Source: Flavobacterium sp. 140616W15 | GTDB taxonomy: Bacteria; Bacteroidota; Bacteroidia; Flavobacteriales; Flavobacteriaceae | Direction of reading: 5' to 3' | Assembly (NCBI RefSeq): GCF_003668995.1 | Contig: NZ_CP033068.1 | Location: 3,782,001-3,846,000 of the forward strand | Length of the DNA stretch: 64,000 nt | Shown here: in pieces, positions 33,809-54,930 of the stretch | Layout of the letters: the number at the start of each line of letters is the position of its first letter | Position numbering within the stretch: the stretch's first letter is position 1 | Made by a program: the position numbers and the translations under genes | Notes under the pieces: generated by a model | What the model was told of the DNA's origin: nothing | The model's database searches: none | The model's input: the letters and a program-made list of their open reading frames with translations, nothing else

Positions 33809-35362
33809 TTACAAATCAAATTTTATTCCTTGTGCCAATGGCAAACTTGTAGTATAATTGATAGTATTAGTTTGGCGACGCATGTATATTTTCCAAGCAT
33901 CAGAACCTGATTCACGACCTCCACCAGTTTCTTTTTCACCACCAAAAGCTCCACCGATTTCAGCACCCGAAGTTCCTATGTTTACGTTTGCAATTCCACA
34001 ATCAGAACCTACAACAGATAAGAAATATTCTGCTTCACGCAAATTATTAGTCATAATTGCCGAAGACAAACCTTGAGCAACTCCGTTTTGAATGTCAACT
34101 GCATTTTCTACAGTTCCGCTATATTTTATCAAATATAAAACGGGAGCAAATGTTTCGTGTTGTACGATTTCAAATGAGTTTTCTGCTTCAGCAATAGCTG
34201 GTTTTACATAACATCCACTTTCGTAACCTTCTCCAGAAAGTACGCCACCTTCTACAAGGATTTTACCACCTTCAGCAACAACTTTGGTTAAGGCATTAGC
34301 ATACATCTCTACAGCATGCGTGTCAATTAGCGGACCAACATGGTTGTTTTCGTCCAAAGGATTTCCGATACGCAATTGTTTGTAAGCTGAAACAATAGCA
34401 TCTTTTACTTTATCATAAATACTTTCGTGAATGATTAAACGACGTGTAGATGTACAACGTTGTCCTGCAGTTCCTACCGCTCCAAAAACAGCACCAATCA
34501 CAGTCATTTTTATATCTGCATCTGGAGTAACAATAATAGCGTTGTTTCCTCCTAACTCTAATAACGATTTGCCTAAACGTCCTGCAACTGTTTGAGCAAC
34601 AATTTTACCCATTCGAGTAGAACCTGTAGCTGAAACTAAAGGAATACGTTTATCTGCAGTCATTAACTCTCCTACTTTATAATCTCCATTAATCAAGCAA
34701 GAAATACCTTCTGGAAGATTGTTCTCTTTAATTACCTGTGCAATTATATTCTGGCAAGCGATACCACAAAGAGGTGTTTTCTCTGATGGTTTCCAAACAC
34801 AAACATCACCACAAATCCAAGCCAAAGCTGTATTCCAAGACCAAACTGCTACTGGGAAATTAAATGCCGAAATAATTCCGACAACTCCCATTGGGTGGTA
34901 TTGCTCATACATACGGTGTCCAGGTCGCTCCGAATGCATTGTTAGTCCGTGAAGCTGACGTGACAATCCTACTGCGAAATCGCAAATATCAATCATCTCT
35001 TGAACTTCTCCATATCCTTCTTGTAATGATTTCCCCATTTCGTAAGAAACCAATTTACCTAAAGCTTCTTTATTCTGACGTAATTTTTCTCCAAACTGAC
35101 GTACGATTTCTCCACGTTGTGGCGCTGGCATAAGTCTGAAAACTTTAAATGCCTCTGTCGCTGTTTGCATTACTTTTTCGTAATCGGCAGCTGTTGATGT
35201 TTTTACCGATGCTATTAATTTTCCGTCTACTGGCGAAAAGCTTTCAAGAATATCACCTGAAGAAAAGTTATTTAGTCCAGTTGATGTTCCTTCGTTTATG
35301 GCTTTTATACCCAATTGCGCCAATGCGTCTTTCATTCCGAATTGCTCTGCTATTGTTATCAT
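33809..35362 (-). CDS. amaB: ALDH7-type aldehyde dehydrogenase (aminoadipate semialdehyde / P6C dehydrogenase)
   Basis: The 517-residue NAD-dependent dehydrogenase is of the antiquitin family, which oxidises L-2-aminoadipate 6-semialdehyde (in equilibrium with piperideine-6-carboxylate) in lysine catabolism. Motifs are FNFPVAVWSWN (about 169-179), the NAD-binding VSATGSTRMGK, ELGGNNAIIV with the catalytic glutamate (about 269), and GTAGQRCTSTRR with the catalytic cysteine (about 302). The ALDH7-specific C-terminal GAEIGGAFGGEKETGGGRESG is present. No lysine genes adjoin it, but a hydroxylysine-kinase-like fusion at 52624-54930 could feed the same intermediate. Substrate assignment is from family resemblance. 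Confidence 0.88.
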   Translation of the reverse strand: MITIAEQFGMKDALAQLGIKAINEGTSTGLNNFSSGDILESFSPVDGKLIASVKTSTAADYEKVMQTATEAFKVFRLMPAPQRGEIVRQFGEKLRQNKEALGKLVSYEMGKSLQEGYGEVQEMIDICDFAVGLSRQLHGLTMHSERPGHRMYEQYHPMGVVGIISAFNFPVAVWSWNTALAWICGDVCVWKPSEKTPLCGIACQNIIAQVIKENNLPEGISCLINGDYKVGELMTADKRIPLVSATGSTRMGKIVAQTVAGRLGKSLLELGGNNAIIVTPDADIKMTVIGAVFGAVGTAGQRCTSTRRLIIHESIYDKVKDAIVSAYKQLRIGNPLDENNHVGPLIDTHAVEMYANALTKVVAEGGKILVEGGVLSGEGYESGCYVKPAIAEAENSFEIVQHETFAPVLYLIKYSGTVENAVDIQNGVAQGLSSAIMTNNLREAEYFLSVVGSDCGIANVNIGTSGAEIGGAFGGEKETGGGRESGSDAWKIYMRRQTNTINYTTSLPLAQGIKFDL

Positions 35363-35447: not shown

Positions 35448-36341
35448 TTACATAATGTTTTTTCGTTTAAACCATATATAGATAAAAACACACATGACAA
35501 ACATAAAAATAATTGCGTACAAATACCCAAATTTCCATTCTAATTCTGGCATAAATTTAAAATTCATTCCATAAACCCCAACCAAAAAGGTAAGAGGCAA
35601 GAAGAAAGCAGAAAAAACTGTTAATAATTTAACGACATCATTATTTTTTTGAGCCGTAACAGATAAGAAAGTATTCATTAAGTTAATCGCATCTTCCATA
35701 GCCTCTTCATAAGCAAGTATAAGCTTAATAAGATTGTCTTTTACATCTTCAAGTGCAGAAGCATTTTCTTCTGGAACATGAACCTTATTAATAACATTTT
35801 GCGTAAGCACTAAAAGTTTTTTGGTAATTCTGGTTTCAGCTTTTTGAAAATACAAATCTTCCAAAGAGATTTTATTTTGCTGTTTTAAGAAAATAGTTTT
35901 TTCAACTTCATCTATCTGATCCGTTTGCCATTGCGAAGGGGCACTATAGGTAAGAATAATTTCTTTAAAAATGCGTATTAGCAATTCATAAACAGAAGTG
36001 CACTTTAAATCAGATTTAAAAATATCCTCCAAAAAAGAAAAAGGAGTTCTATGAATCGTTATTAATTGTTTTTCATTATAAAAAAAAGCAACCTTATTTG
36101 ACAACTCTTCTACAGTAGAATTGTTATCATATTCATTTGCAGTATAAGCTCTTAGAATGATAAAATTAAAATTCTTAATCTTTTCTACTTTAGGTAAATG
36201 TCCGTGTTCCACCGAATCTTTGACTGGAAAAACCTCCAAATCAAACTTTTGGGCAATATCTTCTAATTGTGCTTCTGTTGGTCCTTTTATGTCGAGCCAA
36301 TTAAACGATTCAAATGATTTTTCGGAGATATTTTTTGCCAT
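35448..36341 (-). CDS. CorA-family divalent cation transporter (first copy)
   Basis: The 297-residue protein has a cytoplasmic N-terminal domain, a long stalk helix and two C-terminal TM helices (about 236-256 and 268-290) separated by the CorA signature GMN in VGVYGMNFKFMP (about 251-256), which forms the pore mouth. Members carry Mg2+, Co2+ or Ni2+, or Zn2+ efflux in ZntB; the sequence does not tell which. A second CorA gene follows upstream on the same strand with a 103-bp gap. Confidence 0.9.
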   Translation of the reverse strand: MAKNISEKSFESFNWLDIKGPTEAQLEDIAQKFDLEVFPVKDSVEHGHLPKVEKIKNFNFIILRAYTANEYDNNSTVEELSNKVAFFYNEKQLITIHRTPFSFLEDIFKSDLKCTSVYELLIRIFKEIILTYSAPSQWQTDQIDEVEKTIFLKQQNKISLEDLYFQKAETRITKKLLVLTQNVINKVHVPEENASALEDVKDNLIKLILAYEEAMEDAINLMNTFLSVTAQKNNDVVKLLTVFSAFFLPLTFLVGVYGMNFKFMPELEWKFGYLYAIIFMFVMCVFIYIWFKRKNIM

Positions 36342-36444
36342 TATACTATTTAGTTTTTAATTAGGATTGATTCAAAACCATATAAAGTTAACGATTAAGA
36401 ATTTAAAGTCATCAAGATGGTCTTTATTCCTCTTAAAAACTAAA

Positions 36445-37371
36445 CTAAAACATGTTTTTTTTCTTAAATAAGAAAACCCCACATATTGATATTAACAATG
36501 AAATCAATAAAATAACAACAAAACCATAGCTGTTTTCCTGAAGATTATTAGGAACATTCATTCCATATAAGCTTGCTACCAAAGTTGGAATCATCAAAAT
36601 TATAGAAATAGAAGTTAATCTTTTCATGATAACATTCAAGTTATTCGAGATTACCGACGCATAGGCATCCATCATTCCTGTCAAGATATTACTATAAATG
36701 TTTGTAGTTTCTTCTGCTTGTCTCAACTCGATTTCAACATCCTCGAGTAAAACAGGATCAAAATCTTCTTTATGGTTTTTCAGATTTTTTATTCTATGAA
36801 ACAACATATCGTTGCCTTTTAATGAAGTGATAAAAAATACCAAACATTTCTCTATTTGAAGTAATGCTTGTAATTCTTCGTTTTTAATTGATTTTTCAAG
36901 GTTGTCTTCAGCCAATCGAATTCGCTGATTTATTTGCTTTAAATATTTTAAGAACCAAATACTAGAAGACAAAAGCAACCTTAAAACCAAATCAAAATGG
37001 TTCTTTACATCCGATTTTTTTCGTTGGGTATATAAAACAAAATCTGATAAAATTTCTGCTTGATGAAAACTTAGCGATACAAAGACATCATCTTTAAACA
37101 TTAAGCCCAAAGGGGCTGTATTGAATGGTAATTTTGCATCATTACTTTTAAAAGGAATCCGCAATATAATAAGAAACCAGCCGTTTTCGATTTCAATACG
37201 TGGCCGTTCATCAATATCTTCAATGTCGTTATAAAAAGCTTCAGGGATTTGTAATTCGTGGAGTAAAAATTTAGTTTCTTCCTGTGTCGGACAAACTACA
37301 TTAATCCATTTGTTGTTCTCACGGTTTTCTGTTGGAAATAATCCGTTGTTGTTTTTGTAAAAGGTAATCAT
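36445..37371 (-). CDS. CorA-family divalent cation transporter (second copy)
   Basis: The 308-residue CorA-like protein has the same layout and GMN motif in ASLYGMNVPNN (about 268-278), with TM helices near 250-270 and 283-303. It shares only low similarity with its neighbour, so the pair is not a recent duplication; a hetero-oligomer or different ion preference is possible. It is preceded by about 145 bp of AT-rich sequence after the 3-hydroxyanthranilate dioxygenase gene. Confidence 0.9.
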   Translation of the reverse strand: MITFYKNNNGLFPTENRENNKWINVVCPTQEETKFLLHELQIPEAFYNDIEDIDERPRIEIENGWFLIILRIPFKSNDAKLPFNTAPLGLMFKDDVFVSLSFHQAEILSDFVLYTQRKKSDVKNHFDLVLRLLLSSSIWFLKYLKQINQRIRLAEDNLEKSIKNEELQALLQIEKCLVFFITSLKGNDMLFHRIKNLKNHKEDFDPVLLEDVEIELRQAEETTNIYSNILTGMMDAYASVISNNLNVIMKRLTSISIILMIPTLVASLYGMNVPNNLQENSYGFVVILLISLLISICGVFLFKKKNMF

Positions 37372-42126: not shown

Positions 42127-42783
42127 ATGAAAACTGTTTCCTCCATCGTAGAAAATTACATCAAAACGAAGCCTTTTTTATTAAATGCATTATCACTCGG
42201 CATTATTAATCTAACCTCATTATCTAGAAATATAATGACTGAATTAGAAAGCGAATTTGGCAAAGAAGTAAAACAAGGTGCTGTAGTAATGTCGTTAAAA
42301 CGACTAACGGAAGAATTAGATTTTAAATTAAATCATAAGATAAACAAAGTAATTAAGAATATTGGCGAGATTACAGTACGATCAGAACTTACAGATTATA
42401 CTTTTGCAGCATCTGAAACTGTTTTGAACAAACAAGCTGATTTAATATCTGACATTAATACATTATCAGATATATTCTATACCTCATCTCGTGGTGTTAA
42501 CGAAACCAATATTGTAGTTAGTAGCAGTATAAATCAACTAGTTGAAAAACACTTTGCTCGCGAAAAATTAATTCAGAAATTAAGCAATTTGGCTTCAATT
42601 ACTGTAAAATTACCAAAAGAAAACATTGTAGTTCCTGGTATATATTACTTTATTTTCCAACGTTTAGCATGGGAAGGAATTATAATAAATGAAGTTATCT
42701 CTACATCAAATGAATTTACAATATTAGTAAGTGAAGATCAAGTAGATATTGCTTTTAAAGTGATCAAAGACTTAAAAAACTAG
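42127..42783 (+). CDS. ACT-domain-like protein of unknown function
   Basis: The 218-residue soluble protein is conserved in Bacteroidetes and often labelled as aspartate-kinase-like because of C-terminal ACT-type strands (about 140-216, with LASITVKLPKENIVVPGIYY and FTILVSEDQVDIAFKVIKDL). The N-terminal ~95 residues are helical (NYIKTKPFLLNALSLGIINL) and resemble a small DNA-binding or dimerisation bundle. No kinase motifs are present, so it is not an aspartate kinase. A regulatory protein sensing a small ligand is a reasonable guess only. It has its own promoter and terminator. Confidence 0.6.
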   Translation: MKTVSSIVENYIKTKPFLLNALSLGIINLTSLSRNIMTELESEFGKEVKQGAVVMSLKRLTEELDFKLNHKINKVIKNIGEITVRSELTDYTFAASETVLNKQADLISDINTLSDIFYTSSRGVNETNIVVSSSINQLVEKHFAREKLIQKLSNLASITVKLPKENIVVPGIYYFIFQRLAWEGIIINEVISTSNEFTILVSEDQVDIAFKVIKDLKN

Positions 42784-43545: not shown

Positions 43546-46500
43546 ATGAAACAATTAAAAAACTTACTTAGGAAGCCTTTTCTAATGCCGATCATTCTCC
43601 TTTTTTGGCTACCAAATATCCTACTCGCGCAGGAGAGTCAGACAAAAAAGACCATATCTGGAAAAGTTACTGATGACAAAAACAACTCCTTGCCTGGAGT
43701 TAGTATTTCTATAAAAGACACTAAGTATAATGCCGCAACCGATTTTGATGGAAATTATACTTTAACCTATATACCAAATGGTACGAATCAGACTATTCTT
43801 TTTTCTTACTTAGGATTTATAGAAAAAACGGAAGCTATCAATAATCGCAGTGAAATTAATGCATCGATGCAAGAAGAAACCAATAAACTTAATGAGGTAA
43901 TTGTTATTGGTTACGGATCTCAAAAGAAAAGCAATGTTACAGGAGCCATTTCATCTGTTAAGAAGGAAAGCATCGAAACACGAGCTACAACAAATCCAGC
44001 CGAAGCACTACAAGGCTTGGTTGCCGGAGTAAATGTTCAAAAAAGTGGTGGTGTTGCTGGAGCAGCTGTAAGCGTAAAAATACGTGGAGTAAATACTTTT
44101 GGAGCAACAGAACCTCTTTACATTATTGATGGGTTCCAAGGAAACATTAATACTGTAAATCCAACAAATATAGAATCTATGGAGGTTCTTAAAGATGGTG
44201 CGGCAGCAGCAATTTACGGATCTGTCGCAGCTAATGGAGTAATAATTGTAACTACAAAAAACGGTCAAAAAGAAGGAGTGAAAGTAGATTTTAGTTCATT
44301 TTTGGCTTATAAAAACACAGCAAAAACATTGGATTTATTAGATGCTGATGGCTATCGTACGGTACACAAAAGAATGTATGATGAGTATAATAAATATGCA
44401 ACTTCTCCTAAAGCTCTTCCAGCTTATATCACTAATCCATCAACTACCAATACCGATTGGCAAGACGAAGTTTTCCGTCCTGGGCTTACTCAAAATTATG
44501 GCATGGGCGTACAAGGAAGACAAGGTGATCTTAAATTTGCCTTATATGGTAATTATGTAAAAGAAAAAGGAATTGTTATCGATAATACTTTTGGCCAACA
44601 AACCGCTAGCGCAAGAGTTAGCTTTAAAAAATCAATCTTTGATGTAGATGGAAAAATGGCATACATTGGAACACAAAATGCATTACCTAATTTTCAACTT
44701 AGAGAAGTATATGCAATATCGCCTTTAGTCCCTGTTTACGATGCAAATGAACCTTACGGTTATGGCTTAACAAACAAAAATGGTTTACCTACTAATACTA
44801 ATCCTGTTGCCGAAGAACATTTTAAAAACAGCATGATAAAAGGTCAGGATATAACTGCAAATATTGCTATAACTGCAAACATTAGCTCTTGGTTAAAATA
44901 CAAAATAGCCTATTCTTATCGTGCAAAAAATGAGCAACAAACAGCGCATTTCCCACCTTATATTGCTAATCCAAAAGAAGCACATTTGTACCCATTGCAA
45001 ACCGAATTAAGATCATATTGGGATGAGCAAATATTAGACAACATTATAACAATTGACAAAACTTTTGGCAAACATACCTTTGGCTTGATGCTTGGAAATA
45101 CTATAAATGGAGTCTCTTCAAATTGGAATGAGGTAAGCGTAGAAGGAAAAACAACTGACTATTCTGTAGAGAACGGACAATTAGTATCAATTGATCGTCC
45201 CTCTGGATTTTTAGATCCAAATTTTGAAACTATTGGAGCAGGTAAAGGAGGAACATACTCAGCAGATGGCTCTAAATTTCAATACAACCGTCTTTCTTTT
45301 TTTAGCCGACTAAATTATTCTTTCAACGATCGCTACTTACTTCAAATGACGATTAGAAAAGATGGTTCATCTAAATTTGGAGAAGACAGTCGTTGGGGAA
45401 CTTTTCCATCTATTGCATTAGGATGGAAAATAGAACAAGAAGACTTTTTCCCTAAAGACTTTATCATATCAACTTTAAAATTGCGTGCTAGTTGGGGACA
45501 ATTAGGAAACGAAGCCGCTCTAGGGTATTACTCAGCAAATACATTAATTAGTACAGGAAACGGTTTAGGTTCTGGCTCTGTACAAGGTAACGGAAGTAAT
45601 CCTTGGCCTGGAAGTATTGCAAAAACGTTAGAGAATAGAAACTTACAATGGGAAACAACAGATTCTAAAAATATTGGTGTTGATTTTACCCTTAAAAACG
45701 GAAAAATTAGTGGTTCTATGAACTACTACCATAATGTAACTGACAATTTATTGATTACAAAAAAACTAGCTCCATCTGCTGGAATCGATGATCCTATTTT
45801 AAACGTAGGCAAAATTAGTAATAGCGGATTTGAACTTGAAGTTAATTACCGCGACCAGATTAATGAGTTTAAATACAATGTAGGTTTTAACATGTCTACC
45901 CTTAAAAACAAAGTAATCTCACTTGCAAACGAAGGTCAGACTATTTATGGTGAGGGATTAAAATATGGAGATGAGCATTTCCCTACTCAAGCACGCGTAG
46001 GAAATCCGATTAGTGGCTTTTATTTATACAAAACAGATGGTATTTTCCAATCTACTGACGAAGTAAATGCTCATAGTAAAAATGGTGTTTTATTACAACC
46101 AAATGCGCAACCGGGAGATATCCGATTTAAAGATTTGAATGGAGATGGTGTTATAGATGAAAACGACAAAGCATATGCTGGAACTGGATTACCAAAACTT
46201 GAAGCTAACATTAGTTTAGGTGCGAGCTATAAAGGGTTCGATTTCTCAGCTTTAATAGGAAGTGGCTGGGGCAACAAATTATATAACGGAAATAGATATT
46301 TCTATGAATCTATGAATTCTGGAACTAACATGCTAGCTTCAACACTTAATTCATGGACACCAGAAAACCACAGTAACACTCCTCGTGCCGTTTTGCAAGA
46401 TCCAAATGGAAACAGCCGTGAATCAGATCGTTTTCTCGAAAGTGGCGATTTTATAAGAATGCGTCAATTACAAATCGGATATACAATCCCTAATAAAATG

Positions 46501-46683
46501 TTAGGCGGAGCAAAATTAGACAAGCTAAGGATTTATGTAAGTGCGGAGAATTTATTCACCATCACAAACTACTCAGGTATAGATCCAGAATTCTCGCGTT
46601 CTTCTGTTCTGAATACAGGAATTGACCGTTTCGTGTATCCATTTACAAGAACGTTTGTAACAGGTGTTCAATACATATTTTAA
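43546..46683 (+). CDS. SusC/RagA-type TonB-linked outer membrane receptor
   Basis: The 1045-residue receptor imports oligomers through the outer membrane. After a signal peptide (about 1-28, ending LLAQ) comes a carboxypeptidase-like beta-sandwich (about 36-115: KTISGKVTDDKNNSLPGVSI, FDGNYTL), then the SusC signature with NEVIVIGYGSQKKSNVTGAI (about 117-136), the plug (about 137-250, with LYIIDG and GSVAANGVIIVTTK), and a beta-barrel ending GVQYIF. Together with SusD next door it forms a lidded importer. Substrate is inferred from the downstream enzymes, not from the receptor. Confidence 0.96.
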   Translation: MKQLKNLLRKPFLMPIILLFWLPNILLAQESQTKKTISGKVTDDKNNSLPGVSISIKDTKYNAATDFDGNYTLTYIPNGTNQTILFSYLGFIEKTEAINNRSEINASMQEETNKLNEVIVIGYGSQKKSNVTGAISSVKKESIETRATTNPAEALQGLVAGVNVQKSGGVAGAAVSVKIRGVNTFGATEPLYIIDGFQGNINTVNPTNIESMEVLKDGAAAAIYGSVAANGVIIVTTKNGQKEGVKVDFSSFLAYKNTAKTLDLLDADGYRTVHKRMYDEYNKYATSPKALPAYITNPSTTNTDWQDEVFRPGLTQNYGMGVQGRQGDLKFALYGNYVKEKGIVIDNTFGQQTASARVSFKKSIFDVDGKMAYIGTQNALPNFQLREVYAISPLVPVYDANEPYGYGLTNKNGLPTNTNPVAEEHFKNSMIKGQDITANIAITANISSWLKYKIAYSYRAKNEQQTAHFPPYIANPKEAHLYPLQTELRSYWDEQILDNIITIDKTFGKHTFGLMLGNTINGVSSNWNEVSVEGKTTDYSVENGQLVSIDRPSGFLDPNFETIGAGKGGTYSADGSKFQYNRLSFFSRLNYSFNDRYLLQMTIRKDGSSKFGEDSRWGTFPSIALGWKIEQEDFFPKDFIISTLKLRASWGQLGNEAALGYYSANTLISTGNGLGSGSVQGNGSNPWPGSIAKTLENRNLQWETTDSKNIGVDFTLKNGKISGSMNYYHNVTDNLLITKKLAPSAGIDDPILNVGKISNSGFELEVNYRDQINEFKYNVGFNMSTLKNKVISLANEGQTIYGEGLKYGDEHFPTQARVGNPISGFYLYKTDGIFQSTDEVNAHSKNGVLLQPNAQPGDIRFKDLNGDGVIDENDKAYAGTGLPKLEANISLGASYKGFDFSALIGSGWGNKLYNGNRYFYESMNSGTNMLASTLNSWTPENHSNTPRAVLQDPNGNSRESDRFLESGDFIRMRQLQIGYTIPNKMLGGAKLDKLRIYVSAENLFTITNYSGIDPEFSRSSVLNTGIDRFVYPFTRTFVTGVQYIF

Positions 46684-46706
46684 TTCTATTCCTAAAAGAC
46701 ACAATC

Positions 46707-48206
46707 ATGAAGAAGACATTTTTTATACTATCCATTATAGGCCTATTAACTGTCGCTAGTTGTAGTGACTATTTAGACCAACAATCTCCCGATCAACTTA
46801 CTTCAAATAATTTCTGGAGAAATAAAGCCGATGCCGAATCCGCTTTGGCAGCAACATATTCGCAACTCGAAGGTGCTGTCGATCAATGGGCTTTTGCCGA
46901 AGTAAAATGGCCCGTAGAAGCCTATAGAGAAGATATTTGCGAACTAGGAAGTGATGCATTAAATTACCAAAGCTGGGTAGAACTTTCGACATTCACCTAT
47001 ACCAATGGTAATAGTCAATTTACTAGATATTGGACACTAAATTACAGAGGAATTAGTAATGCAAATCAAGTAATTGATAAGTTACCACAAGTTCCAACTG
47101 CAACATTAAATGATGCTGATCGCAAACAAATAGAAGCCGAAGCTCGTTTTTTACGTGCTTATTACCACATGAAATTGCTTCTTAACTGGGAACAAATTTA
47201 TATCAGAAACAAATATATAACTAAAGAAAGTGATTTAAGTGTTCCATTATCAACACGTGTTGAAACTTGGAACTTCATTACAAGTGAACTTAAAGCCGTA
47301 GCCGAAATATTACCACTTAAACAAACACAAGACAAAACCGGTCGTGCAACTAGTGGAGCGGCCAATAGCTACCTAGGATTTGCTTATTTAACAAGAGCAT
47401 ACGAAGAAACAGCCCAAAAACAAACATTCCTAAATGAATCTCTTGCTGCATTAAACAAAGTACAAGGATATGATTTGGTTAAAGATTATGTATCCATGTT
47501 TGATGGTACTACCAAAAATTCTAAAGAATCTATATTCGAACTACAATTCACAGAAACTACTGCCAATGGTGCATTTTACCGTAATGCACTCCACTTTTGG
47601 ATGGCTGCAGGAGAACTAGGCGGATGGGATGAAATTCTTCCGAGTACAATGCTTGTAAACGAATTTAAAAAAGAAGGGAAAATAGCTACCACAGGAAATT
47701 ACGACACTCGTCTTTATAGCACGCTTTTCTTTAAAGATCCTTATTTTAATGATTCAAACAATCCAAGAGTATTAGGAACTACTTACGATGATAAATTTGG
47801 TGATACTGACAAACCCGTATTCCGTAAATACATACCAAATACCCAAGAAAAAATGGATCAGGAATATACAGCAATCAACATTCCGCTTATGCGATATTCA
47901 AATGTATTATTGATGCAAGCAGAAGCACTGAACGAGCTAGGCCGTACGCCAGAAGCTATTCCATACATTAACAAAGTTCGTGATAGAGCCGATATGCCTG
48001 CAATGACTGGTACAACTGGTGATGAGGTAAAAGCTCAAATCGAACATGAAAGAATATTAGAATTTCCTCTAGAAAACTATCGCTTTTATGACTTACGTCG
48101 TTGGGGCAAAACAAAATCAGCACTTGATGCTGTAGGCCGTACTGGTTTTAATGCATCAAAAAACAATTTTTATCCAATTCCATTAACAGAGTTACAAGCA
48201 AATTAA
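46707..48206 (+). CDS. SusD/RagB-type surface lipoprotein
   Basis: The 499-residue surface lipoprotein captures the glycan for SusC. Lipobox VASC (cysteine about 19) precedes the family start SDYLDQQSPDQLTSNNFW. The TPR-like N-terminal half contains AEARFLRAYYHMKLL, and the C-terminal part carries the SusD hallmark ERILEFPLENYRFYDLRRWG (about 451-470). Length is typical. It follows susC by 23 bp. A terminator-like hairpin after it would favour higher susCD than enzyme expression. Confidence 0.95.
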   Translation: MKKTFFILSIIGLLTVASCSDYLDQQSPDQLTSNNFWRNKADAESALAATYSQLEGAVDQWAFAEVKWPVEAYREDICELGSDALNYQSWVELSTFTYTNGNSQFTRYWTLNYRGISNANQVIDKLPQVPTATLNDADRKQIEAEARFLRAYYHMKLLLNWEQIYIRNKYITKESDLSVPLSTRVETWNFITSELKAVAEILPLKQTQDKTGRATSGAANSYLGFAYLTRAYEETAQKQTFLNESLAALNKVQGYDLVKDYVSMFDGTTKNSKESIFELQFTETTANGAFYRNALHFWMAAGELGGWDEILPSTMLVNEFKKEGKIATTGNYDTRLYSTLFFKDPYFNDSNNPRVLGTTYDDKFGDTDKPVFRKYIPNTQEKMDQEYTAINIPLMRYSNVLLMQAEALNELGRTPEAIPYINKVRDRADMPAMTGTTGDEVKAQIEHERILEFPLENYRFYDLRRWGKTKSALDAVGRTGFNASKNNFYPIPLTELQAN

Positions 48207-48230
48207 TCCATTGAATTATTTTAATTTTTA

Positions 48231-48267
48231 AAAGAATAGCCCTATATTTCTTGGGCTATTCTTTTTA
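48231..48267 (+). terminator. Intercistronic hairpin between susD and the glycosidase genes
   Basis: The stem AAAGAATAGCCC / GGGCTATTCTTT with a 10-base loop followed by T residues. It probably acts as a partial terminator setting relative expression. Confidence 0.7.
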
Positions 48268-48357
48268 TCTACTGATTTCGTATTTCTCTATTAATCACTA
48301 TTTAAGAATCGAGAAATGTATCACAAACCAAAAACATTCAATAAAAAACGAAACAAC

Positions 48358-50364
48358 ATGGGCAAAAGGCAAATACTTTATATTCTTTTATTCTTTTTTA
48401 TAATACAGTTCAATTGGGCACAAAAAGACTTCCCTATTTTAGAATCTTCAAAAAACAGTATAAATTATAAAGGAAATCCAACAGAAGCTACAGATAGAAA
48501 ATCATTAGCTTTCTCTGATAAAGGTGCGTGGTTCGCATTTGGGTTCCTTGAACCAAGTGAAGTTAAAGCTGGCTTTTCTGGTCCTTTTTTAATGACCGAA
48601 GAAAATGGAGTTTGGCTAAGCCCTTCGTTGGTTTCATTACAACTTAATGACGAAAACAAACACGAAGCCATCAACTGGAAAAGTAGCTTGGTAAGTCAAA
48701 ATAGTTACAATAGCCATTTAGTACAACTATTTCAAAATGAAAAATTAGACGTAAAACAGCAACTTGTTTTTTTATCTGGTCATTCAGCACTACAAAAAAC
48801 AAGTATTACCAATAAAACTGGAAAAGTCATCACCCTTTACCCTTCTTATGATTCCAATATTTTCATAGACAACATCCAATTATCTAAAGAAAATAAAACA
48901 TTAAAAATTGTTTCTACAAAAAGTACTGCTATTGGACACATTCAGTTTCTTAATGCAACACCCGAAGTTGAAATTTTCAAACAAGGATATAAAGTTCAAA
49001 CTGAAAAACTAGTATTAAAACCAAACGAAACCAAAGACCTAATTGTTTCTCAAACCTTTATTTTTCCACAATATTCATGGAAAAATGAAAATGAAATCAT
49101 CGCAAAAACAACTTTCAATACACTCCTTAAAAACACCCAAAAAGAAAAAGAGAGTCAATTAGAACAATTAATTGCCAGAAAGAAATCAATTTACAAAGAT
49201 GCTACTTACTCTGATTTGGTTGCTAAACTAGTATTGACATTACAAAATAATACCAGAATTGCTGCCGAAGGATTAAAACACGGTGGACTTTTTCCTAGTT
49301 ACAATTACAAGTGGTTTCATGGTTTTTGGGCATGGGACAGCTGGAAACATGCGGTTGCGGTTGCCAATTATGACTCCGAATTGGCAAAAAACCAAATGCG
49401 TGCCCTATTTGATTATCAAGAACCAAACGGATTTATTCCAGATTGCATCTACAGAAACAACCTCCTCGAAGAAAACAATTACCGAAATACAAAATCGCCA
49501 CTTGCAGCATGGGCAATCTGGAAAATTTATGAAAAAACTAAAGATGCCAATTTTATAAAAGAGTTTTATCCAAAACTAAAATCATATCATAACTGGTGGT
49601 ACAAAGAACGTGACCATGATCAGGATGGTATATGCGAATTTGGCTCTACAGATGGAACATTGGTTGCTGCCAAATGGGAAAGCGGAATGGATAATGCAGT
49701 ACGTTTTGATGATAGTAAAATCTTAAAGAACGGTGATAAAGCCTATTCATTAGACCAGGAAAGCGTTGACTTAAATTCATTTTTATACGCCGAAAAGAAC
49801 TTTTTAAATAAAATGGCTCAAGTTTTAAAATTGAATGAAGAAGCTAAAAAATGGCAAGACGAAAGTGCAACATTAAAAGCTAAAATTCAAACTCAATTTT
49901 GGGATCCAACAACAGGTTGGTATTATGATACCACAATCGACGGAAAAACATTGATAAAAGCGATGGGATGTGAAGGATATTTACCAATTTGGGCTGAGGT
50001 TGCTACAGCCGAACAAACCAAAGCCATGAAAGAAAACATGATGAATCCTACTATTTTCAACACATATGTTCCTTTACCAACATTGGCCGCAAACCACCCA
50101 AAATTTAAACCAGAACGTGGCTATTGGAGAGGACCTATTTGGCTTGACCAAAGTTATTTTGGTATAAATGGATTGGAAAAATACGGTTATACAACCGAAG
50201 CAAACCAATTGGCACATAAACTCATTCATAATGCAGAAGGAGTTCTGGACAAAGGCACATCTATAAGAGAAAACTACCAACCGCTTACAGGAAAAGGAAT
50301 GGAAGCTTTTAACTTTAGCTGGTCGGCCTCACATTATTTAATGCTACTTTTAGAAGATAAATAA
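48358..50364 (+). CDS. Exported GH63-like (MGH1/YgjK-type) alpha-glucosidase
   Basis: Starting at ATG 48358 gives 668 residues with signal peptide MGKRQILYILLFFFIIQFNWA; an earlier in-frame ATG would place 14 charged residues ahead of it. A beta-sandwich N-terminal domain (about 25-260) precedes an (alpha/alpha)6 barrel (about 280-665). Barrel motifs are FHGFWAWDSWKHA (about 320-332), KWESGMDNAVRFDD (about 440-453; candidate acid Asp about 445), SVDLNSFL and RENYQPLTGKGMEAFNFSW (candidate base Glu about 638). These match clan GH-G enzymes such as GH63 YgjK rather than GH65 phosphorylases. Likely periplasmic exo-alpha-glucosidase; I recall Glc-alpha-1,2-Gal as a good ligand of YgjK. Confidence 0.8.
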   Translation: MGKRQILYILLFFFIIQFNWAQKDFPILESSKNSINYKGNPTEATDRKSLAFSDKGAWFAFGFLEPSEVKAGFSGPFLMTEENGVWLSPSLVSLQLNDENKHEAINWKSSLVSQNSYNSHLVQLFQNEKLDVKQQLVFLSGHSALQKTSITNKTGKVITLYPSYDSNIFIDNIQLSKENKTLKIVSTKSTAIGHIQFLNATPEVEIFKQGYKVQTEKLVLKPNETKDLIVSQTFIFPQYSWKNENEIIAKTTFNTLLKNTQKEKESQLEQLIARKKSIYKDATYSDLVAKLVLTLQNNTRIAAEGLKHGGLFPSYNYKWFHGFWAWDSWKHAVAVANYDSELAKNQMRALFDYQEPNGFIPDCIYRNNLLEENNYRNTKSPLAAWAIWKIYEKTKDANFIKEFYPKLKSYHNWWYKERDHDQDGICEFGSTDGTLVAAKWESGMDNAVRFDDSKILKNGDKAYSLDQESVDLNSFLYAEKNFLNKMAQVLKLNEEAKKWQDESATLKAKIQTQFWDPTTGWYYDTTIDGKTLIKAMGCEGYLPIWAEVATAEQTKAMKENMMNPTIFNTYVPLPTLAANHPKFKPERGYWRGPIWLDQSYFGINGLEKYGYTTEANQLAHKLIHNAEGVLDKGTSIRENYQPLTGKGMEAFNFSWSASHYLMLLLEDK

Positions 50365-50407
50365 TTTAAAGAATACCACAAATTCGATTAACTCAATACA
50401 ACCAAGA

Positions 50408-52543
50408 ATGTTCAAGCAAAATATATCATTAATCAAAATTTTATTTACACTATTGCTTATCGCAAATTGTAATTCGAATCCTATTTTTTCTCAAACTAAA
50501 AAAAACACAGCAACGGAGAAAAAAGACCCACAACGCTTTTTTTCAAAACCTGATTTAATGCAAATTGGTGTTTACTATTATCCTGAGCAATGGCCAAAAG
50601 AACAATGGGAACGTGATTTAAAAAACATAAAAAAACTAGGATTTGAGTTTACGCATTTTGCTGAATTTGCTTGGACTTATATGGAACCCGAAGAAGGTAA
50701 ATATGATTTTAAATGGCTTGATGACGCACTTGCTATAGCCGAAAAAAACGGTTTAAAAGTAATTCTTTGTACTCCTACCCCAACCCCACCAGCATGGATG
50801 GGAGATAAATATCCTGAAATTTATTTGGTAGATGCAAGCGGACGTCGCAGAGAACACGGTAATAGAGCTAATGTATCTATAACAAATGAAAAATACCGAG
50901 AATTTACAGATCAAATAGTTGCCGAACTTGGAAAAAGATACGGTAAAAATAAAAACATCATGGGTTGGCAAATCGACAATGAACCTTTAGGTACTGCCGA
51001 TTTCAGTCCTTCAGCTCGCAAAGCATTTCAAATTTGGCTTAAAGCCAAATACGGAACAATCGAAAAACTAAATACCGAATGGGTTGGGAATTTTTGGAGT
51101 ACCCGTTATAATAACTTTGAACAAATAGTTTTACCTAATGCTGAAATTTATTTTGAAGACAAATTAAGTCCGCATGCCGTTTTAGATTTTAAAAGATTTA
51201 CTTCTGATGCACAGGGGGAATATTTGAATAGACAAGCCGAAATACTTCGTAAATATGTTGATCCAAAACAATGGATAACAACCAACTTTACCAATGTAAT
51301 TTATGATGCCGACCCAAGGAGTGCTAATAAAATGGACTTCATTACCTATACGATGTATCCTGTAAGTGGACAAAATCCTTTGGGAGGAGATAGCTTTAGA
51401 ATGGGATCTCCTAACAAAATATCTGAAGCCAATGATTACTACAGATCAATAAGCGGTGTTACTGGTATTATGGAATTACAACCTGGACAAGTAAACTGGG
51501 CAGGGATTAACCCACAATTACAGCCAGGAACGGTTCATATGTGGATATCTCAAGCTTTTGGTGGTGGTTGTTCCTTTACTTGTACGTATAGATACAGACA
51601 CCCGCTAGGAAGTAGCGAAATGTACCATGATGGAATCGTAGGAACCGATGGCGTAACACTTACTACTGGTGGAAAAGAATTTGTACAATCTATCGAGGAC
51701 ATAAAATTGCTTCGTAAAGAATACAATCCGAAAGCAGTAATCCCTCAAGAAATTGCAAAAAGAAAAACAGGTTTTTTATGGAGTCATGAGAACCTTTGGG
51801 ATTTAGAAAATCAAAAACAAACCGAATTCTGGAGCACTTGGAGACATCGAAATATCTATACAACAGCTATAAAATCGACTGGTGCTCCAGTAGATTTTAT
51901 TACAGAAAATGATGATTTCTCTGCTTATCCATTTATCGTTGCTCCTGCTTATCAACTAATAGATCAAAAATTAGTAGACAAATGGACTAAATATGTTGAA
52001 AACGGAGGAAACTTAATACTTTCTTGTCGTACTGGTCAGAAAGATAGAAATGGACATTTTTTTGAAGCCAATTGGAGTGCGCCAATCGTACCATTAATTG
52101 GTGCCGATGTAGATTTTTTTGATATGCTTGTTGCTAATGTAAACGGAACAATAACTGCTGGTAATAATACTCATAAATGGAATACTTGGGCTGATGTCTT
52201 GAGTCCGAAACAAGGAACAGAAGTTTTAGCAACCTATGCAGATCAATTTTACAAAGGTAAAGCAGCGGTTATTACAAGAAAACTAGGCAAAGGAACTGTT
52301 ACTTATATTGGTGCAGAAAGTAAAGATGGAAATTTAGAAAGACAAGTAGTTCGTACTATTTACGAGCGTGCAAAAGTAGCTATCGAAGATTTGCCAAAAG
52401 GAGTTTTTATAGAATGGAGAGATGGTTTTTATGTAGGTGTAAACTATACAAATGAGCCTATAAACTTATCTATACCTCAAGGAAGCAAAATCCTTGTGGG
52501 ACAAAACCCTTTACAACCAGCCCAGGCTATTATTTGGAAATAG
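50408..52543 (+). CDS. Exported GH42-type beta-galactosidase
   Basis: The 711-residue enzyme has an N-terminal hydrophobic signal (about 1-29), a TIM barrel (about 45-430), a class-I-glutamine-amidotransferase-like trimerisation domain (about 440-640) and a small C-terminal beta domain, as in GH42. The catalytic acid/base is in IDNEPLG (Glu about 192) and the nucleophile in MELQPGQVNW (Glu about 356). The opening IGVYYYPEQWPKEQWERDL is typical. It should remove terminal beta-galactose in the periplasm. A LLLIANC segment could make it a lipoprotein, but Asn before Cys is a poor lipobox. It follows the GH63-like gene by 43 bp. Confidence 0.9.
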   Translation: MFKQNISLIKILFTLLLIANCNSNPIFSQTKKNTATEKKDPQRFFSKPDLMQIGVYYYPEQWPKEQWERDLKNIKKLGFEFTHFAEFAWTYMEPEEGKYDFKWLDDALAIAEKNGLKVILCTPTPTPPAWMGDKYPEIYLVDASGRRREHGNRANVSITNEKYREFTDQIVAELGKRYGKNKNIMGWQIDNEPLGTADFSPSARKAFQIWLKAKYGTIEKLNTEWVGNFWSTRYNNFEQIVLPNAEIYFEDKLSPHAVLDFKRFTSDAQGEYLNRQAEILRKYVDPKQWITTNFTNVIYDADPRSANKMDFITYTMYPVSGQNPLGGDSFRMGSPNKISEANDYYRSISGVTGIMELQPGQVNWAGINPQLQPGTVHMWISQAFGGGCSFTCTYRYRHPLGSSEMYHDGIVGTDGVTLTTGGKEFVQSIEDIKLLRKEYNPKAVIPQEIAKRKTGFLWSHENLWDLENQKQTEFWSTWRHRNIYTTAIKSTGAPVDFITENDDFSAYPFIVAPAYQLIDQKLVDKWTKYVENGGNLILSCRTGQKDRNGHFFEANWSAPIVPLIGADVDFFDMLVANVNGTITAGNNTHKWNTWADVLSPKQGTEVLATYADQFYKGKAAVITRKLGKGTVTYIGAESKDGNLERQVVRTIYERAKVAIEDLPKGVFIEWRDGFYVGVNYTNEPINLSIPQGSKILVGQNPLQPAQAIIWK

Positions 52544-52623
52544 GAGAAATATACTTTTAATTTATAGCTCCATTTAACACCAATGGCCTTAACAGATAAA
52601 AAACAACTTAATAAACAATACCA

Positions 52624-54930
52624 ATGATTTTTTCAGAGACAGACATTCAGCAATTAGCGATAGAACATTATGGATTATCCGCTACCGTAAAAGCATTAGA
52701 CGGTTATGATGAATTGAACTTTATCTTAACTGATGAAAAAAATCAGAAGTATATATTAAAGCTTTCTGATGAAAATCAGCCGTATCCTTTTTTGGAAGCA
52801 CAAGTGAAAATTATTCAGCATTTAAGAAAGAGTCCTTTAGCCGATAGCTTTCAACAATTTTCAATCAATAAAAATGGAGAAGCATTAACCCAAATTATCA
52901 AAGACAACAAAACGTATTACATACGAATTCTAAGTTTTCTAGAAGGTTCTTTTTGGTACGAACAGCCAAAAAAATCAGATACTGCCCTTTATAATTTAGG
53001 AGCATTTATGGGGAATATGGACAAAGCACTTCAGGATTTTTCGCATCCTGCAATGCATAGAAATTATACTTGGGATATTAGCAGAGCGAGTGATGCCAAT
53101 GAAAAACTGAAATACATCACTAATCACGAGCGCAGACGAATTGCAGGTTATTTCCTTTTGCAGTTTGATACCGAAGTGCTTCCACAAATACAGCCGTTAC
53201 GGCATGCATACATTCATAATGACGCCAATGATTGTAATGTAATGGCTCGAGAAGAACAAACAACGGGATTAATTGATTTTGGCGATATGGTTTATTCTGC
53301 TTTAATCAATAACCTCGCAATAACTTGTACCTATGCAATTCTGGAATATGATGATCCATTAACAGCAGCTTCATTTATTGTAAAAGGATATCACGAAGCA
53401 TATCCGCTTAAAACAGAAGAACTCGATTTATTATATTACTTAATTGCAGGAAGACTTTGCATTAGCGTAACACAATCCGCATACAATACATCGTTAAACA
53501 GTGATAATATACACCATTTTATTACTGAAAAACCAGCTTGGGAATTACTACATAAACTCATCAAAATTAACCCTATAAAAGCTCAAGATACTTTTAGAAA
53601 AGTATGTGGATTTGATGGAGTAATAAACGATTCCGACTATTCAGATTTATTACAAGCGCGTCAAAAAAATGTAGGTCGAAATCTAAGTATAGGATATAAT
53701 GACAAATTAAAAATTGTAAAAGGAGCGTTACAATATTTATACGATGACAAAGGAAGAACCTTTGTTGATTGTGTTAATAATCCTTCACATGTTGGACATT
53801 GCCACCCTGTCGTAGTAAAGAAAATGCAAAAACAAATTGCTACCCTAAATACCAATACAAGATACCTTAACGATACCATATTAGAATATGCCGAAAAACT
53901 TACAGCAACATTACCTCCTTCTTTAAGCGTTTGCTATTTTGTAAACTCAGGAAGTGAAGCTAATGATTTAGCCATTCGAATGAGCCGTCATTTCACCAAA
54001 CAAAAAGACATCATCGTATTGGACCATGCTTATCACGGAACCTCAACTGTAGCAATGGAAATGAGTCCGTATAAATTTGATAGCAAAGGAGGTTTTGGCC
54101 AAATGCCTTGGATTCACAAGGCAATTAATCCCGATTTATACCGAGGTCCATATAAATATGGCGATACAAAGGCGGGCGAAAAATATGCTGCCGATGTACA
54201 ACGAATTATCAAAGATTTAAAGAAAGAAGATAAATCTCCCGCAGTATTTATTTGTGAAACTCTATTGGGTGTTGGAGGTCAAATCCCACTACCAGAAAAT
54301 TATTTAAAAACTGTATATGATTACGTAAGAGCTTCGGGAGGGGTTTGTATTGCCGATGAAGTTCAGGTAGGATTTGGAAGAGTTGGTGATAAATTCTGGG
54401 GATTCGAATTACAAGATGTCGTCCCTGATATTGTTGTACTAGGAAAACCTATTGGTAACGGACATCCGCTGGCGGCCGTGATTGTAACAAATGAAATAGC
54501 CGATGCTTTTAACAACGGAATGGAATACTTCAATACTTTTGGAGGTAATCCAGTATCAATGTCGGCTGGACTGGCTGTTCTAGAAGTAATTCAAGATGAG
54601 AAAATGCAACAACATGCTCTAGAAGTAGGTAATTACCTTATGGATTTACTCAAAGGATTAATGGCTAAATTCCCAATTATTAGTGATGTTCGCGGACATG
54701 GTTTATTCATTGGTGCCGAAATGGTAAAAGACAGAACCACCATGGAACCTGCAATTCCAGAAATTGATATTGTAGTAGAAAAAATGAAAGAAAAAGGATA
54801 CCTATTAAGTACAGATGGCCCTTTGCATAATGTTTTAAAAATAAAACCACCAATGCCATTCAACAAACAAAATGCAGATGAAATGGTTCAGTTTCTTGAA
54901 GAGGCTTTAAAAGAGATTCACATTCAATAA
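52624..54930 (+). CDS. Fused APH-type kinase and class III aminotransferase-fold phospho-lyase
   Basis: The 768-residue cytoplasmic fusion has no signal peptide. Residues about 1-335 are an APH-fold kinase of the hydroxylysine-kinase (HYKK) type, with [12 protein letters not shown] (about 197-208) and [10 protein letters not shown] (about 217-226) as catalytic and metal motifs. Residues about 350-768 are a PLP enzyme of the ETNPPL/PHYKPL branch of class III aminotransferases: [43 protein letters not shown] and the PLP lysine in GKPIGNGHP (Lys about 608). It could phosphorylate an amino alcohol (5-hydroxylysine or ethanolamine) and then eliminate phosphate and ammonia to give an aldehyde. It follows the two glycosidases on the same strand. 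Confidence 0.85.

What the first reader, a model, noticed from the sequence alone, without database searches (positions are those of the whole stretch)
43546..54930. Candidate locus for glucosyl-galactosyl-hydroxylysine (collagen glycan) use
SusC/SusD, an exported GH63/YgjK-like alpha-glucosidase, an exported GH42 beta-galactosidase and a cytoplasmic HYKK-like kinase fused to an ETNPPL/PHYKPL-like phospho-lyase lie on one strand in order. Collagen carries Glc-alpha-1,2-Gal-beta-O-hydroxylysine. Known biochemistry: GH42 enzymes are beta-galactosidases; YgjK-type GH63 enzymes handle Glc-Gal linkages (from memory); human HYKK phosphorylates 5-hydroxylysine and PHYKPL converts it to aminoadipate semialdehyde. 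Predicted location fits each step: import, deglycosylation in the periplasm, amino-acid catabolism inside. I know of no described locus that joins glycan removal and hydroxylysine catabolism. The pathway as a whole is inference.
Basis: partly seen in the sequence, partly recalled or inferred. Interest (0 to 1): 0.85.

Follow-up and report, generated by a model that had tools for sequence, protein, structure and literature searches.

The report
Bacterial collagen-sugar and hydroxylysine eating locus
A Flavobacterium gene cluster looks built to import the glucose-galactose-hydroxylysine unit found on animal collagen, strip off its sugars and consume the rare amino acid hydroxylysine; no enzyme has been tested yet.

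Summary
All five genes are present as described: SusC, SusD, an exported YgjK-type GH63, an exported GH42 and a kinase/phospho-lyase fusion, on one strand with gaps of 23-109 bp. Relatives support the collagen-glycan reading. Of the best 80 of 496 GH63 loci from a scan of 84,980 species, 71 have the kinase within 10 kb and 69 a beta-galactosidase (GH42 in 43, GH2 in 26). In 30 Flavobacterium loci the cluster also holds L-piperidine-6-carboxylate dehydrogenase, 2-oxoadipate dioxygenase and a D-2-hydroxyglutarate-dehydrogenase-like enzyme: steps expected after phosphohydroxylysine cleavage, not for ethanolamine. In 13 of 80 loci hydroxyproline-type genes lie near the GH63; one contig strings them, both glycosidases, peptidases, galactose genes and the fusion into an 11-gene run. 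None of 40 control stretches held kinase, lyase, hydroxyproline or aminoadipate genes. YgjK, the nearest solved GH63, was crystallised with Glc-alpha-1,2-Gal, the collagen disaccharide. No activity is shown. The window's genome lacks 2-oxoadipate dioxygenase, and PHYKPL versus ETNPPL specificity cannot be read from sequence. Verdict: interpretation supported; a new variant of a polysaccharide utilisation locus.

The parts
43546..46683 (+). SusC-type TonB-dependent outer-membrane transporter, predicted importer of the glycosylated hydroxylysine or small glycopeptides
   Evidence: TIGR04056 799.8 bits; where present beside the GH63 in Flavobacterium relatives it is 69-95% identical
46707..48206 (+). 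SusD-like outer-membrane lipoprotein, predicted ligand capture
   Evidence: PF07980, PF14322; lipobox with Cys19
48316..50364 (+). Exported YgjK-type GH63, predicted alpha-1,2-glucosidase on Glc-alpha-1,2-Gal
50408..52543 (+). Exported GH42 beta-galactosidase, predicted to split Gal-beta-O-hydroxylysine
   Evidence: PF02449 383.9 bits; alignment to 1kwg; E192 and E356 invariant in 44 of 44
52624..53628 (+). N-terminal APH-type kinase domain of the fusion, predicted 5-hydroxylysine kinase
   Evidence: PF01636 60.9 bits; H198, D200, N205, D218 in 71 of 72 rows, one gap
53629..54930 (+). C-terminal PLP phospho-lyase domain of the fusion, predicted 5-phosphohydroxylysine phospho-lyase giving 2-aminoadipate semialdehyde
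33809..35362 (-). L-piperidine-6-carboxylate (aminoadipate semialdehyde) dehydrogenase: genus-wide copy, about 8 kb upstream and not part of the operon, able to take the predicted lyase product
   Evidence: NF050084 828.9 bits, cut-off 730; G000:C1:3815812-3817353 is 91% identical to the copy inside the L034 cluster

Best explanation
The locus is a utilisation system for the collagen glycan unit Glc-alpha-1,2-Gal-beta-O-5-hydroxylysine (free or on short peptides). SusCD brings it through the outer membrane. The exported GH63 removes glucose and the exported beta-galactosidase removes galactose. Hydroxylysine enters the cytoplasm (transporter unknown), is phosphorylated by the APH domain and cleaved by the PLP domain to 2-aminoadipate semialdehyde, ammonia and phosphate. 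Piperidine-6-carboxylate dehydrogenase then makes 2-aminoadipate, and in many relatives 2-oxoadipate dioxygenase and a D-2-hydroxyglutarate-dehydrogenase-like enzyme carry it (after a transamination whose gene I did not identify) to 2-oxoglutarate. Shown: gene content, families, catalytic residues, conserved linkage and co-occurrence. Inferred: every substrate, the direction of flow, cell location and regulation.
For: (1) GH63 and fusion: 71 of 80 GH63 loci have the kinase within 10 kb. Genus sample: GH63 in 16 of 150, all inside the 20 of 150 with the fusion (Fisher 3.5e-18, not corrected for kinship). (2) Beta-galactosidase in 69 of 80: GH42 43, GH2 26, never both; the L106 GH2 is a LacZ-type model hit above cut-off (1008.8 against 999). 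(3) HGLS and piperidine-6-carboxylate DH together in 32 of 80 loci; a close D-2HGDH-like gene on the same strand in 30. HGLS is in 13 of 20 fusion-bearing and 3 of 130 fusion-free genus genomes, and in G280, G299, G274 and G262 it co-occurs about 126 kb away or on another contig. (4) 13 of 80 loci have hydroxyproline-type genes, 10 of 80 if only the Pro_racemase-family genes are counted (from the table); 4-hydroxyproline epimerase is above cut-off in L079 and L102. (5) L071/L184 contig: 11 consecutive genes on one strand, gaps -17 to +94 bp. (6) Control: 0 of 40 hand-spaced 20-kb stretches from 7 fusion-bearing genomes with kinase, lyase, glycosidase, hydroxyproline or aminoadipate genes. (7) YgjK E727A complex with Glc-alpha-1,2-Gal.
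Against: No activity data. The window and the four close relatives tested lack HGLS, so the fate of 2-aminoadipate there is open. No aminoadipate transaminase or hydroxylysine transporter was recognised in the clusters (not searched genome-wide). Piperidine-6-carboxylate DH is housekeeping in the genus (138 of 150). No M9 collagenase in 150 of 150 genus genomes, though that control rang nowhere. Nearest solved lyase is ETNPPL; no PHYKPL structure to compare. YgjK has also been crystallised with glucose, melibiose and lactose and has a high Km for nigerose (PMC9061262 passage). L085, L097 and L103 have no fusion, hydroxyproline, aminoadipate or peptidase marker within the stretch held. Of the nine loci without the kinase nearby, six genomes have a kinase-lyase elsewhere, but four of those six belong to a separate two-domain clade never seen beside a GH63. 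Fusions of the window's clade occur without GH63 in G289 and G358. SusC/SusD fall to 32-44% in marine loci and are absent from some (SusC found in 52 of 80). The trans-3-hydroxyproline dehydratase-like proteins are below their model's cut-off. Marker queries were chosen after seeing the loci.
Confidence: 0.82

Rival explanations
1. The glycosidases and the fusion serve a different amine: the fusion is an ethanolamine kinase/phosphoethanolamine phospho-lyase for lipid head groups, lying by chance or for general scavenging next to a Glc-Gal locus.
For: The best solved relative of the lyase domain is human ETNPPL, and structural matches rank it first. No tool here distinguishes PHYKPL from ETNPPL.
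Against: Lyases 88-90% identical to the window's lie beside piperidine-6-carboxylate DH and 2-oxoadipate dioxygenase, which act on C6 lysine-type intermediates and have no expected role in ethanolamine use. Hydroxyproline-type genes near the same GH63 point to collagen.
Confidence: 0.08
2. The locus uses hydroxylysine glycosides, but from a source other than animal collagen in bulk, such as collagen-like proteins of sponges, viruses or bacteria, or free glycosides in waste water.
For: Hosts range from freshwater Flavobacterium to marine genera, one from a sponge by its name, Xanthomarina spongicola (titles). No M9 collagenase was found in the genus (control silent).
Against: Hydroxyproline-type genes in 13 and proline-type or related peptidases in 17 of 80 loci suggest collagen-type peptides. 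This rival differs in ecology, not in mechanism.
Confidence: 0.07
3. An ordinary glycan PUL for alpha-gluco-galactans or glycolipids whose amino-acid gene neighbour is only a hitch-hiker kept by synteny.
For: SusCD, GH63 and GH42 alone would be an ordinary PUL; many of the 80 loci are closely related Flavobacterium.
Against: After thinning to 29 GH63 proteins under 70% identity, 22 still have the kinase and 26 have fusion, hydroxyproline or aminoadipate genes. Gene order, strand, beta-galactosidase family and kinase-lyase architecture vary while the set persists.
Confidence: 0.03

Closest known systems
Mammalian route: PGGHG (GH65), beta-galactosidase, HYKK and PHYKPL
   Same: Same chemical steps predicted: Glc off Gal-Hyl, Gal off Hyl, phosphorylation, phospho-elimination to aminoadipate semialdehyde. 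[quoted passage not shown] HYKK and PHYKPL from the title of Veiga-da-Cunha 2012, seen only in reference lists, and from recall.
   Different: The glucosidase here is GH63, not GH65; kinase and lyase are one protein; all are clustered with an importer and, in relatives, with the downstream pathway.
Bacteroidetes polysaccharide utilisation loci (SusCD + glycoside hydrolases)
   Same: SusC/SusD pair and exported hydrolases on one strand.
   Different: The cargo is predicted to be a glycosylated amino acid, and the aglycone's own catabolism is encoded in the cluster.
E. coli YgjK (GH63)
   Same: Same fold over about 617 residues, conserved acid and base; solved with Glc-alpha-1,2-Gal (3w7w).
   Different: 32% identity; YgjK's natural substrate is described as assumed to be another alpha-glucoside than nigerose (PMC9061262 passage).
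APH-M23-class III aminotransferase proteins (NF004799/NF004800, PRK06148/PRK06149)
   Same: The window's fusion scores 967.5 bits to NF004799, below its cut-off of 1128.
   Different: No M23 domain found in the window's fusion; a marine relative has it (L106; by similarity in 29 loci).
HglS/D-2-hydroxyglutarate branch of bacterial lysine catabolism (recalled)
   Same: HGLS and D-2HGDH-like genes flank the cluster in Flavobacterium relatives.
   Different: HGLS is absent from the window's genome.

Membership tests
Bacteroidetes PUL | Adjacent SusC/SusD pair | tested here: met
Bacteroidetes PUL | Co-located exported carbohydrate-active enzymes | tested here: met
   GH63 and GH42; export judged by eye and by lipobox only
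Bacteroidetes PUL | Dedicated regulator | tested here: inconclusive
   None recognised beside the window's genes; an AsnC/Lrp-like gene in 28 of 80 relatives; sigma/anti-sigma-like genes in 12 marine loci were named by eye, not by a family search
YgjK-type GH63 | YgjK fold, N-terminal domain plus catalytic barrel | tested here: met
YgjK-type GH63 | General acid Asp501 (PMC7263609 passage) and base Glu727 (recalled; E727A mutants in PDB titles) | tested here: met
   D459 and E652 align and are invariant in 83 of 83
YgjK-type GH63 | Hydrolysis of Glc-alpha-1,2-Gal | not testable with these tools
   needs assay
GH65 PGGHG | GH65 catalytic domain | tested here: not met
   Pfam matches are GH63/MGH1/trehalase/rhamnosidase-type, none GH65
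GH42 beta-galactosidase | PF02449 + PF08532 with two catalytic Glu | tested here: met
HYKK (hydroxylysine kinase) | APH-family kinase motifs | tested here: met
HYKK (hydroxylysine kinase) | Specificity for 5-hydroxylysine | not testable with these tools
   no solved HYKK among PDB hits and none named in the best 120
PHYKPL/ETNPPL ammoniophospholyases | Class III PLP enzyme closest to ETNPPL-type lyases rather than transaminases | tested here: met
   6tor 480.8 and 5g4i 300.9 bits are the only two hits at E <= 1e-80; next solved chain is a racemase at 178.2 bits
PHYKPL/ETNPPL ammoniophospholyases | PHYKPL rather than ETNPPL specificity | tested here: inconclusive
   no PHYKPL among solved chains; gene context favours PHYKPL
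L-piperidine-6-carboxylate dehydrogenase (cluster neighbour in L034, and window 33809-35362) | NF050084 above cut-off | tested here: met
   827.5 and 828.9 bits, cut-off 730
D-2-hydroxyglutarate dehydrogenase YdiJ (neighbour in L034) | NF049975 above cut-off | tested here: not met
   552.3 bits, cut-off 1350: YdiJ-like only
trans-3-hydroxy-L-proline dehydratase (neighbour in L075, L079) | NF045511 above cut-off | tested here: not met
   379.8 and 373.5 bits, cut-off 540: best model but below cut-off
4-hydroxyproline epimerase (neighbour in L079, L102) | NF010578 above cut-off | tested here: met
   588.6 and 594.1 bits, cut-off 376

The most novel reading that the evidence does not exclude
Flavobacteriia carry a dedicated, repeatedly rearranged system for complete catabolism of the collagen Glc-Gal-Hyl unit, from outer-membrane import to 2-oxoglutarate, using a GH63 as the bacterial counterpart of human GH65 PGGHG; in some genomes it is merged with hydroxyproline, proline-peptide and galactose catabolism into one collagen-peptide operon. 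YgjK-type GH63 enzymes of unknown natural substrate would then include collagen-glycan glucosidases.
Probability: 0.7. Interest if true: 0.87.

Novelty: new variant of a known kind. Interest (0 to 1): 0.82.

Why it matters
Collagen is a very abundant animal protein. PMC8626586 (passages) ties its glucosyl-galactosyl-hydroxylysine unit to a GH65 glucosidase found in man and chicken; none of the titles and abstract starts listed by my searches (two searches returned nothing) describes a bacterial gene set for it, in a library that lacks most subscription papers. If right, the locus gives a testable bacterial route for hydroxylysine, a natural substrate for a YgjK-type GH63, a PUL type whose target is a glycosylated amino acid, enzymes that could strip or read out collagen glycans, and a genetic marker for bacteria that live on animal connective tissue.

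Tried and rejected
Considered and rejected or left open. (a) Ordinary glycan PUL: the amino-acid genes persist across rearrangements. (b) Ethanolamine: context genes are of the lysine/aminoadipate type. (c) GH65-type glucosidase: the family search says GH63. (d) M9 collagenase as a partner: 0 of 150 genus genomes, but the control rang nowhere, so this proves little. (e) HGLS in the window's genome: none. (f) Human HYKK or PHYKPL by name: the best 120 rows of the searches with the two separated domains named only bacteria or metagenomes, where they named anything (one search scored a capped 7998 candidates). (g) A tree of 37 fusions: the two GH63-linked kinds, with and without M23, lie in separate clades and five unlinked two-domain proteins group with the window's clade at 92/76, not starred; two independent recruitments are suggested, not shown. 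Long branches (L122, L027) limit it. (h) The fusion model rests on 13 sequences, has pTM 0.54 and pLDDT under 50 in several segments, mostly between 337 and 415; the kinase half was barely tested by the fold search. (i) The Pseudoalteromonas tunicata paper concerns N6-hydroxylysine siderophores (passages) and is irrelevant. (j) My first wording that six of nine kinase-less loci have 'the fusion' elsewhere was too strong: four of the six are of the separate unlinked clade.
Full report
The locus. The five genes run 43546-54930 on the + strand with gaps of 23, 109, 43 and 80 bp. Families: SusC (TIGR04056), SusD (PF07980), YgjK-type GH63 (PF22422, PF21152), GH42 (PF02449, PF08532), and a fusion of an APH kinase (PF01636) to a class III PLP domain (PF00202). 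SusD has a lipobox and the window's GH42 a weak one; the fusion cluster has none in 71 of 71 members. Cell locations are judged from these and from the N-terminal sequence by eye.

Co-occurrence. In a sample of 246 genomes of the order, 23 are of the genus; 5 of these 23 have both GH63 and fusion and the other 18 neither, at the thresholds used; in the four other than the window the two genes lie together. Outside the genus one genome (G138) has both genes together, in the three-domain form, one (G201) a fusion without GH63, one (G219) a GH63 whose 13-kb contig shows no fusion. In 150 genomes of the genus the fusion is in 20 (G248 and G387 only at 42-43% over the lyase part), the GH63 in 16, all 16 among those 20. 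A scan of 84,980 species with a GH63 alignment gave 496 relatives, of which the best 80 were kept. In those 80 loci (flanks up to 10 kb, some cut by contig ends) one search found by protein similarity: kinase 71, lyase 70, GH42 43, GH2 26, SusC 52, SusD 51, HGLS 32, piperidine-6-carboxylate dehydrogenase 32, D-2HGDH-like 31, Lrp-like 28, M23 29, trans-3-hydroxyproline dehydratase-like 9, pyrroline-2-carboxylate reductase-like 10, 4-hydroxyproline epimerase 3, D-amino-acid dehydrogenase-like 4, M24 peptidases 8 and 6, S37-like peptidase 13, DPP IV-like 2, galactokinase 8, GalT 6; 77 of 80 have kinase, hydroxyproline-type or aminoadipate genes; L085, L097 and L103 have none. Of the nine loci without a kinase nearby, six genomes hold a kinase-lyase elsewhere: in L071's it is on the same contig about 25 kb on, in L079's it is of the three-domain kind, and in the other four it is of a separate two-domain clade with unrelated neighbours. 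L053, L085 and L105 have none. In a control of 40 hand-spaced 20-kb stretches from 7 fusion-bearing genomes only SusC/SusD (2) and one M24 peptidase rang. Thinned at 70% GH63 identity, 22 of 29 keep the kinase and 26 of 29 keep some of the set. The marker proteins were taken from these loci, so the control, not the count alone, carries the argument.

What the neighbours say. In 30 Flavobacterium loci the run is HGLS - piperidine-6-carboxylate DH - (SusC - SusD, missing in five) - GH63 - GH42 - fusion - D-2HGDH-like, usually with an Lrp-like gene ahead; L056 differs in having only a 50% D-2HGDH-like gene on the other strand, and L080 (Zhouia) has HGLS and the dehydrogenase in a marine-type locus. 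Families were checked by HMM on L034 only. Its dehydrogenase is an above-cut-off NF050084 match (827.5 against 730), i.e. the enzyme for the cyclic form of aminoadipate semialdehyde, which is the expected product of phosphohydroxylysine cleavage (recalled). HGLS is PF07063, 2-oxoadipate dioxygenase/decarboxylase. The 983-aa protein is only YdiJ-like (552.3 bits, cut-off 1350). HGLS also exists as a separate Lrp-HGLS-dehydrogenase unit away from the fusion in G280, G299, G274 and G262, and in three fusion-free genomes G264, G335 and G353, so it is a more general module that has been joined to the cluster. Piperidine-6-carboxylate DH is housekeeping in the genus (138 of 150), with a second copy in cluster-bearing genomes such as G344, G350 and G362; it was found in 23 of 23 genomes given from other genera. 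HGLS was found in 14 of 27 genomes given.

Collagen beyond the glycan. Near the same GH63 in 13 loci lie hydroxyproline-type genes; counting only Pro_racemase-family genes it is 10 (table). In L079 and L102 the 4-hydroxyproline epimerase is above its cut-off (588.6 and 594.1 against 376); the 3-hydroxyproline dehydratase-like proteins tested score 379.8 and 373.5 against 540, below cut-off; the L075 reductase is above the cut-off of NF004793 (376.4 against 322). The clearest case is a 39-kb metagenome contig (L071 and L184, labelled Limnohabitans but with Flavobacteriia-like genes): reductase, 3-Hyp dehydratase-like, GH63, GH42, DPP IV, aldose epimerase, galactokinase, GalT, a transporter (named by eye), an M24 peptidase and the fusion, 11 genes on one strand with gaps from -17 to +94 bp (Pfam for DPP IV, epimerase and GalT; the others by similarity; spacing).

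Variation. Marine Flavobacteriia use a three-domain kinase-M23-lyase, and most of them a GH2 LacZ, in place of the two-domain fusion and GH42. A 37-row tree puts the two kinds in separate clades, with unlinked two-domain proteins nearer the window's clade (92/76).

Own clade. The window and four close relatives (L028, L030, L031, L032) lack HGLS. The window's lyase is 88-90% and its kinase 68-74% identical to those in HGLS-bearing Flavobacterium clusters, so the same substrate is likely, but the end of the pathway is unknown there. A piperidine-6-carboxylate DH is at window 33809-35362.

Literature. Full-text searches (listings, with passages read in PMC8626586, PMC7263609, PMC8537180, PMC9061262, PMC8154272, PMC12138971 and PMC2536512) showed me no described bacterial locus for this unit; the library lacks most subscription papers. 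Two of the 120 listed relatives already bear the name 'hydroxylysine kinase /5-phosphonooxy-L-lysine phospho-lyase' (P0017, P0026), so the protein name is not new; the locus and pathway, as far as I could see, are.

Noticed in passing
L071 / L184 (contig JASGCW010000031) and L107: Loci typical of Flavobacteriia lie in MAGs labelled Limnohabitans and Candidatus Neomarinimicrobiota: mis-binning or transfer.
   Followed up: no
L106:11900-14938 and other marine loci: An M23 peptidase domain sits between kinase and lyase in marine relatives; its role in a predicted cytoplasmic metabolic enzyme is unexplained.
   Followed up: partly
proteins P0080-P0104: Flavobacterium psychrophilum, a fish-associated species, carries the fusion at 78% identity; whether GH63 and GH42 lie beside it was not seen.
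   Followed up: no
L124:10827-12737: Between HGLS and the D-2HGDH-like gene lies a protein with HAD, 2-hydroxyacid dehydrogenase and ACT domains, of unclear link to aminoadipate.
   Followed up: partly
L082:11948-15289 and L088:11916-15212: A second, more distant GH2 (39% identity) directly follows the GH63, besides the usual GH2 after the fusion.
   Followed up: no
window 35448-37371: Two neighbouring CorA-type transporter genes beside a 3-hydroxyanthranilate dioxygenase gene.
   Followed up: no
window 42127-42783: ORF of 218 aa upstream of SusC without any Pfam or NCBIfam match.
   Followed up: no
L179-L182: Four marine genomes hold a separate two-domain kinase-lyase, 41-44% identical to the window's, with unrelated neighbours; possibly another substrate.
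   Followed up: partly
L120 (G289): A fusion 69-88% like the window's lies without GH63 or GH42, near a GH130-like and a GH20 gene.
   Followed up: partly
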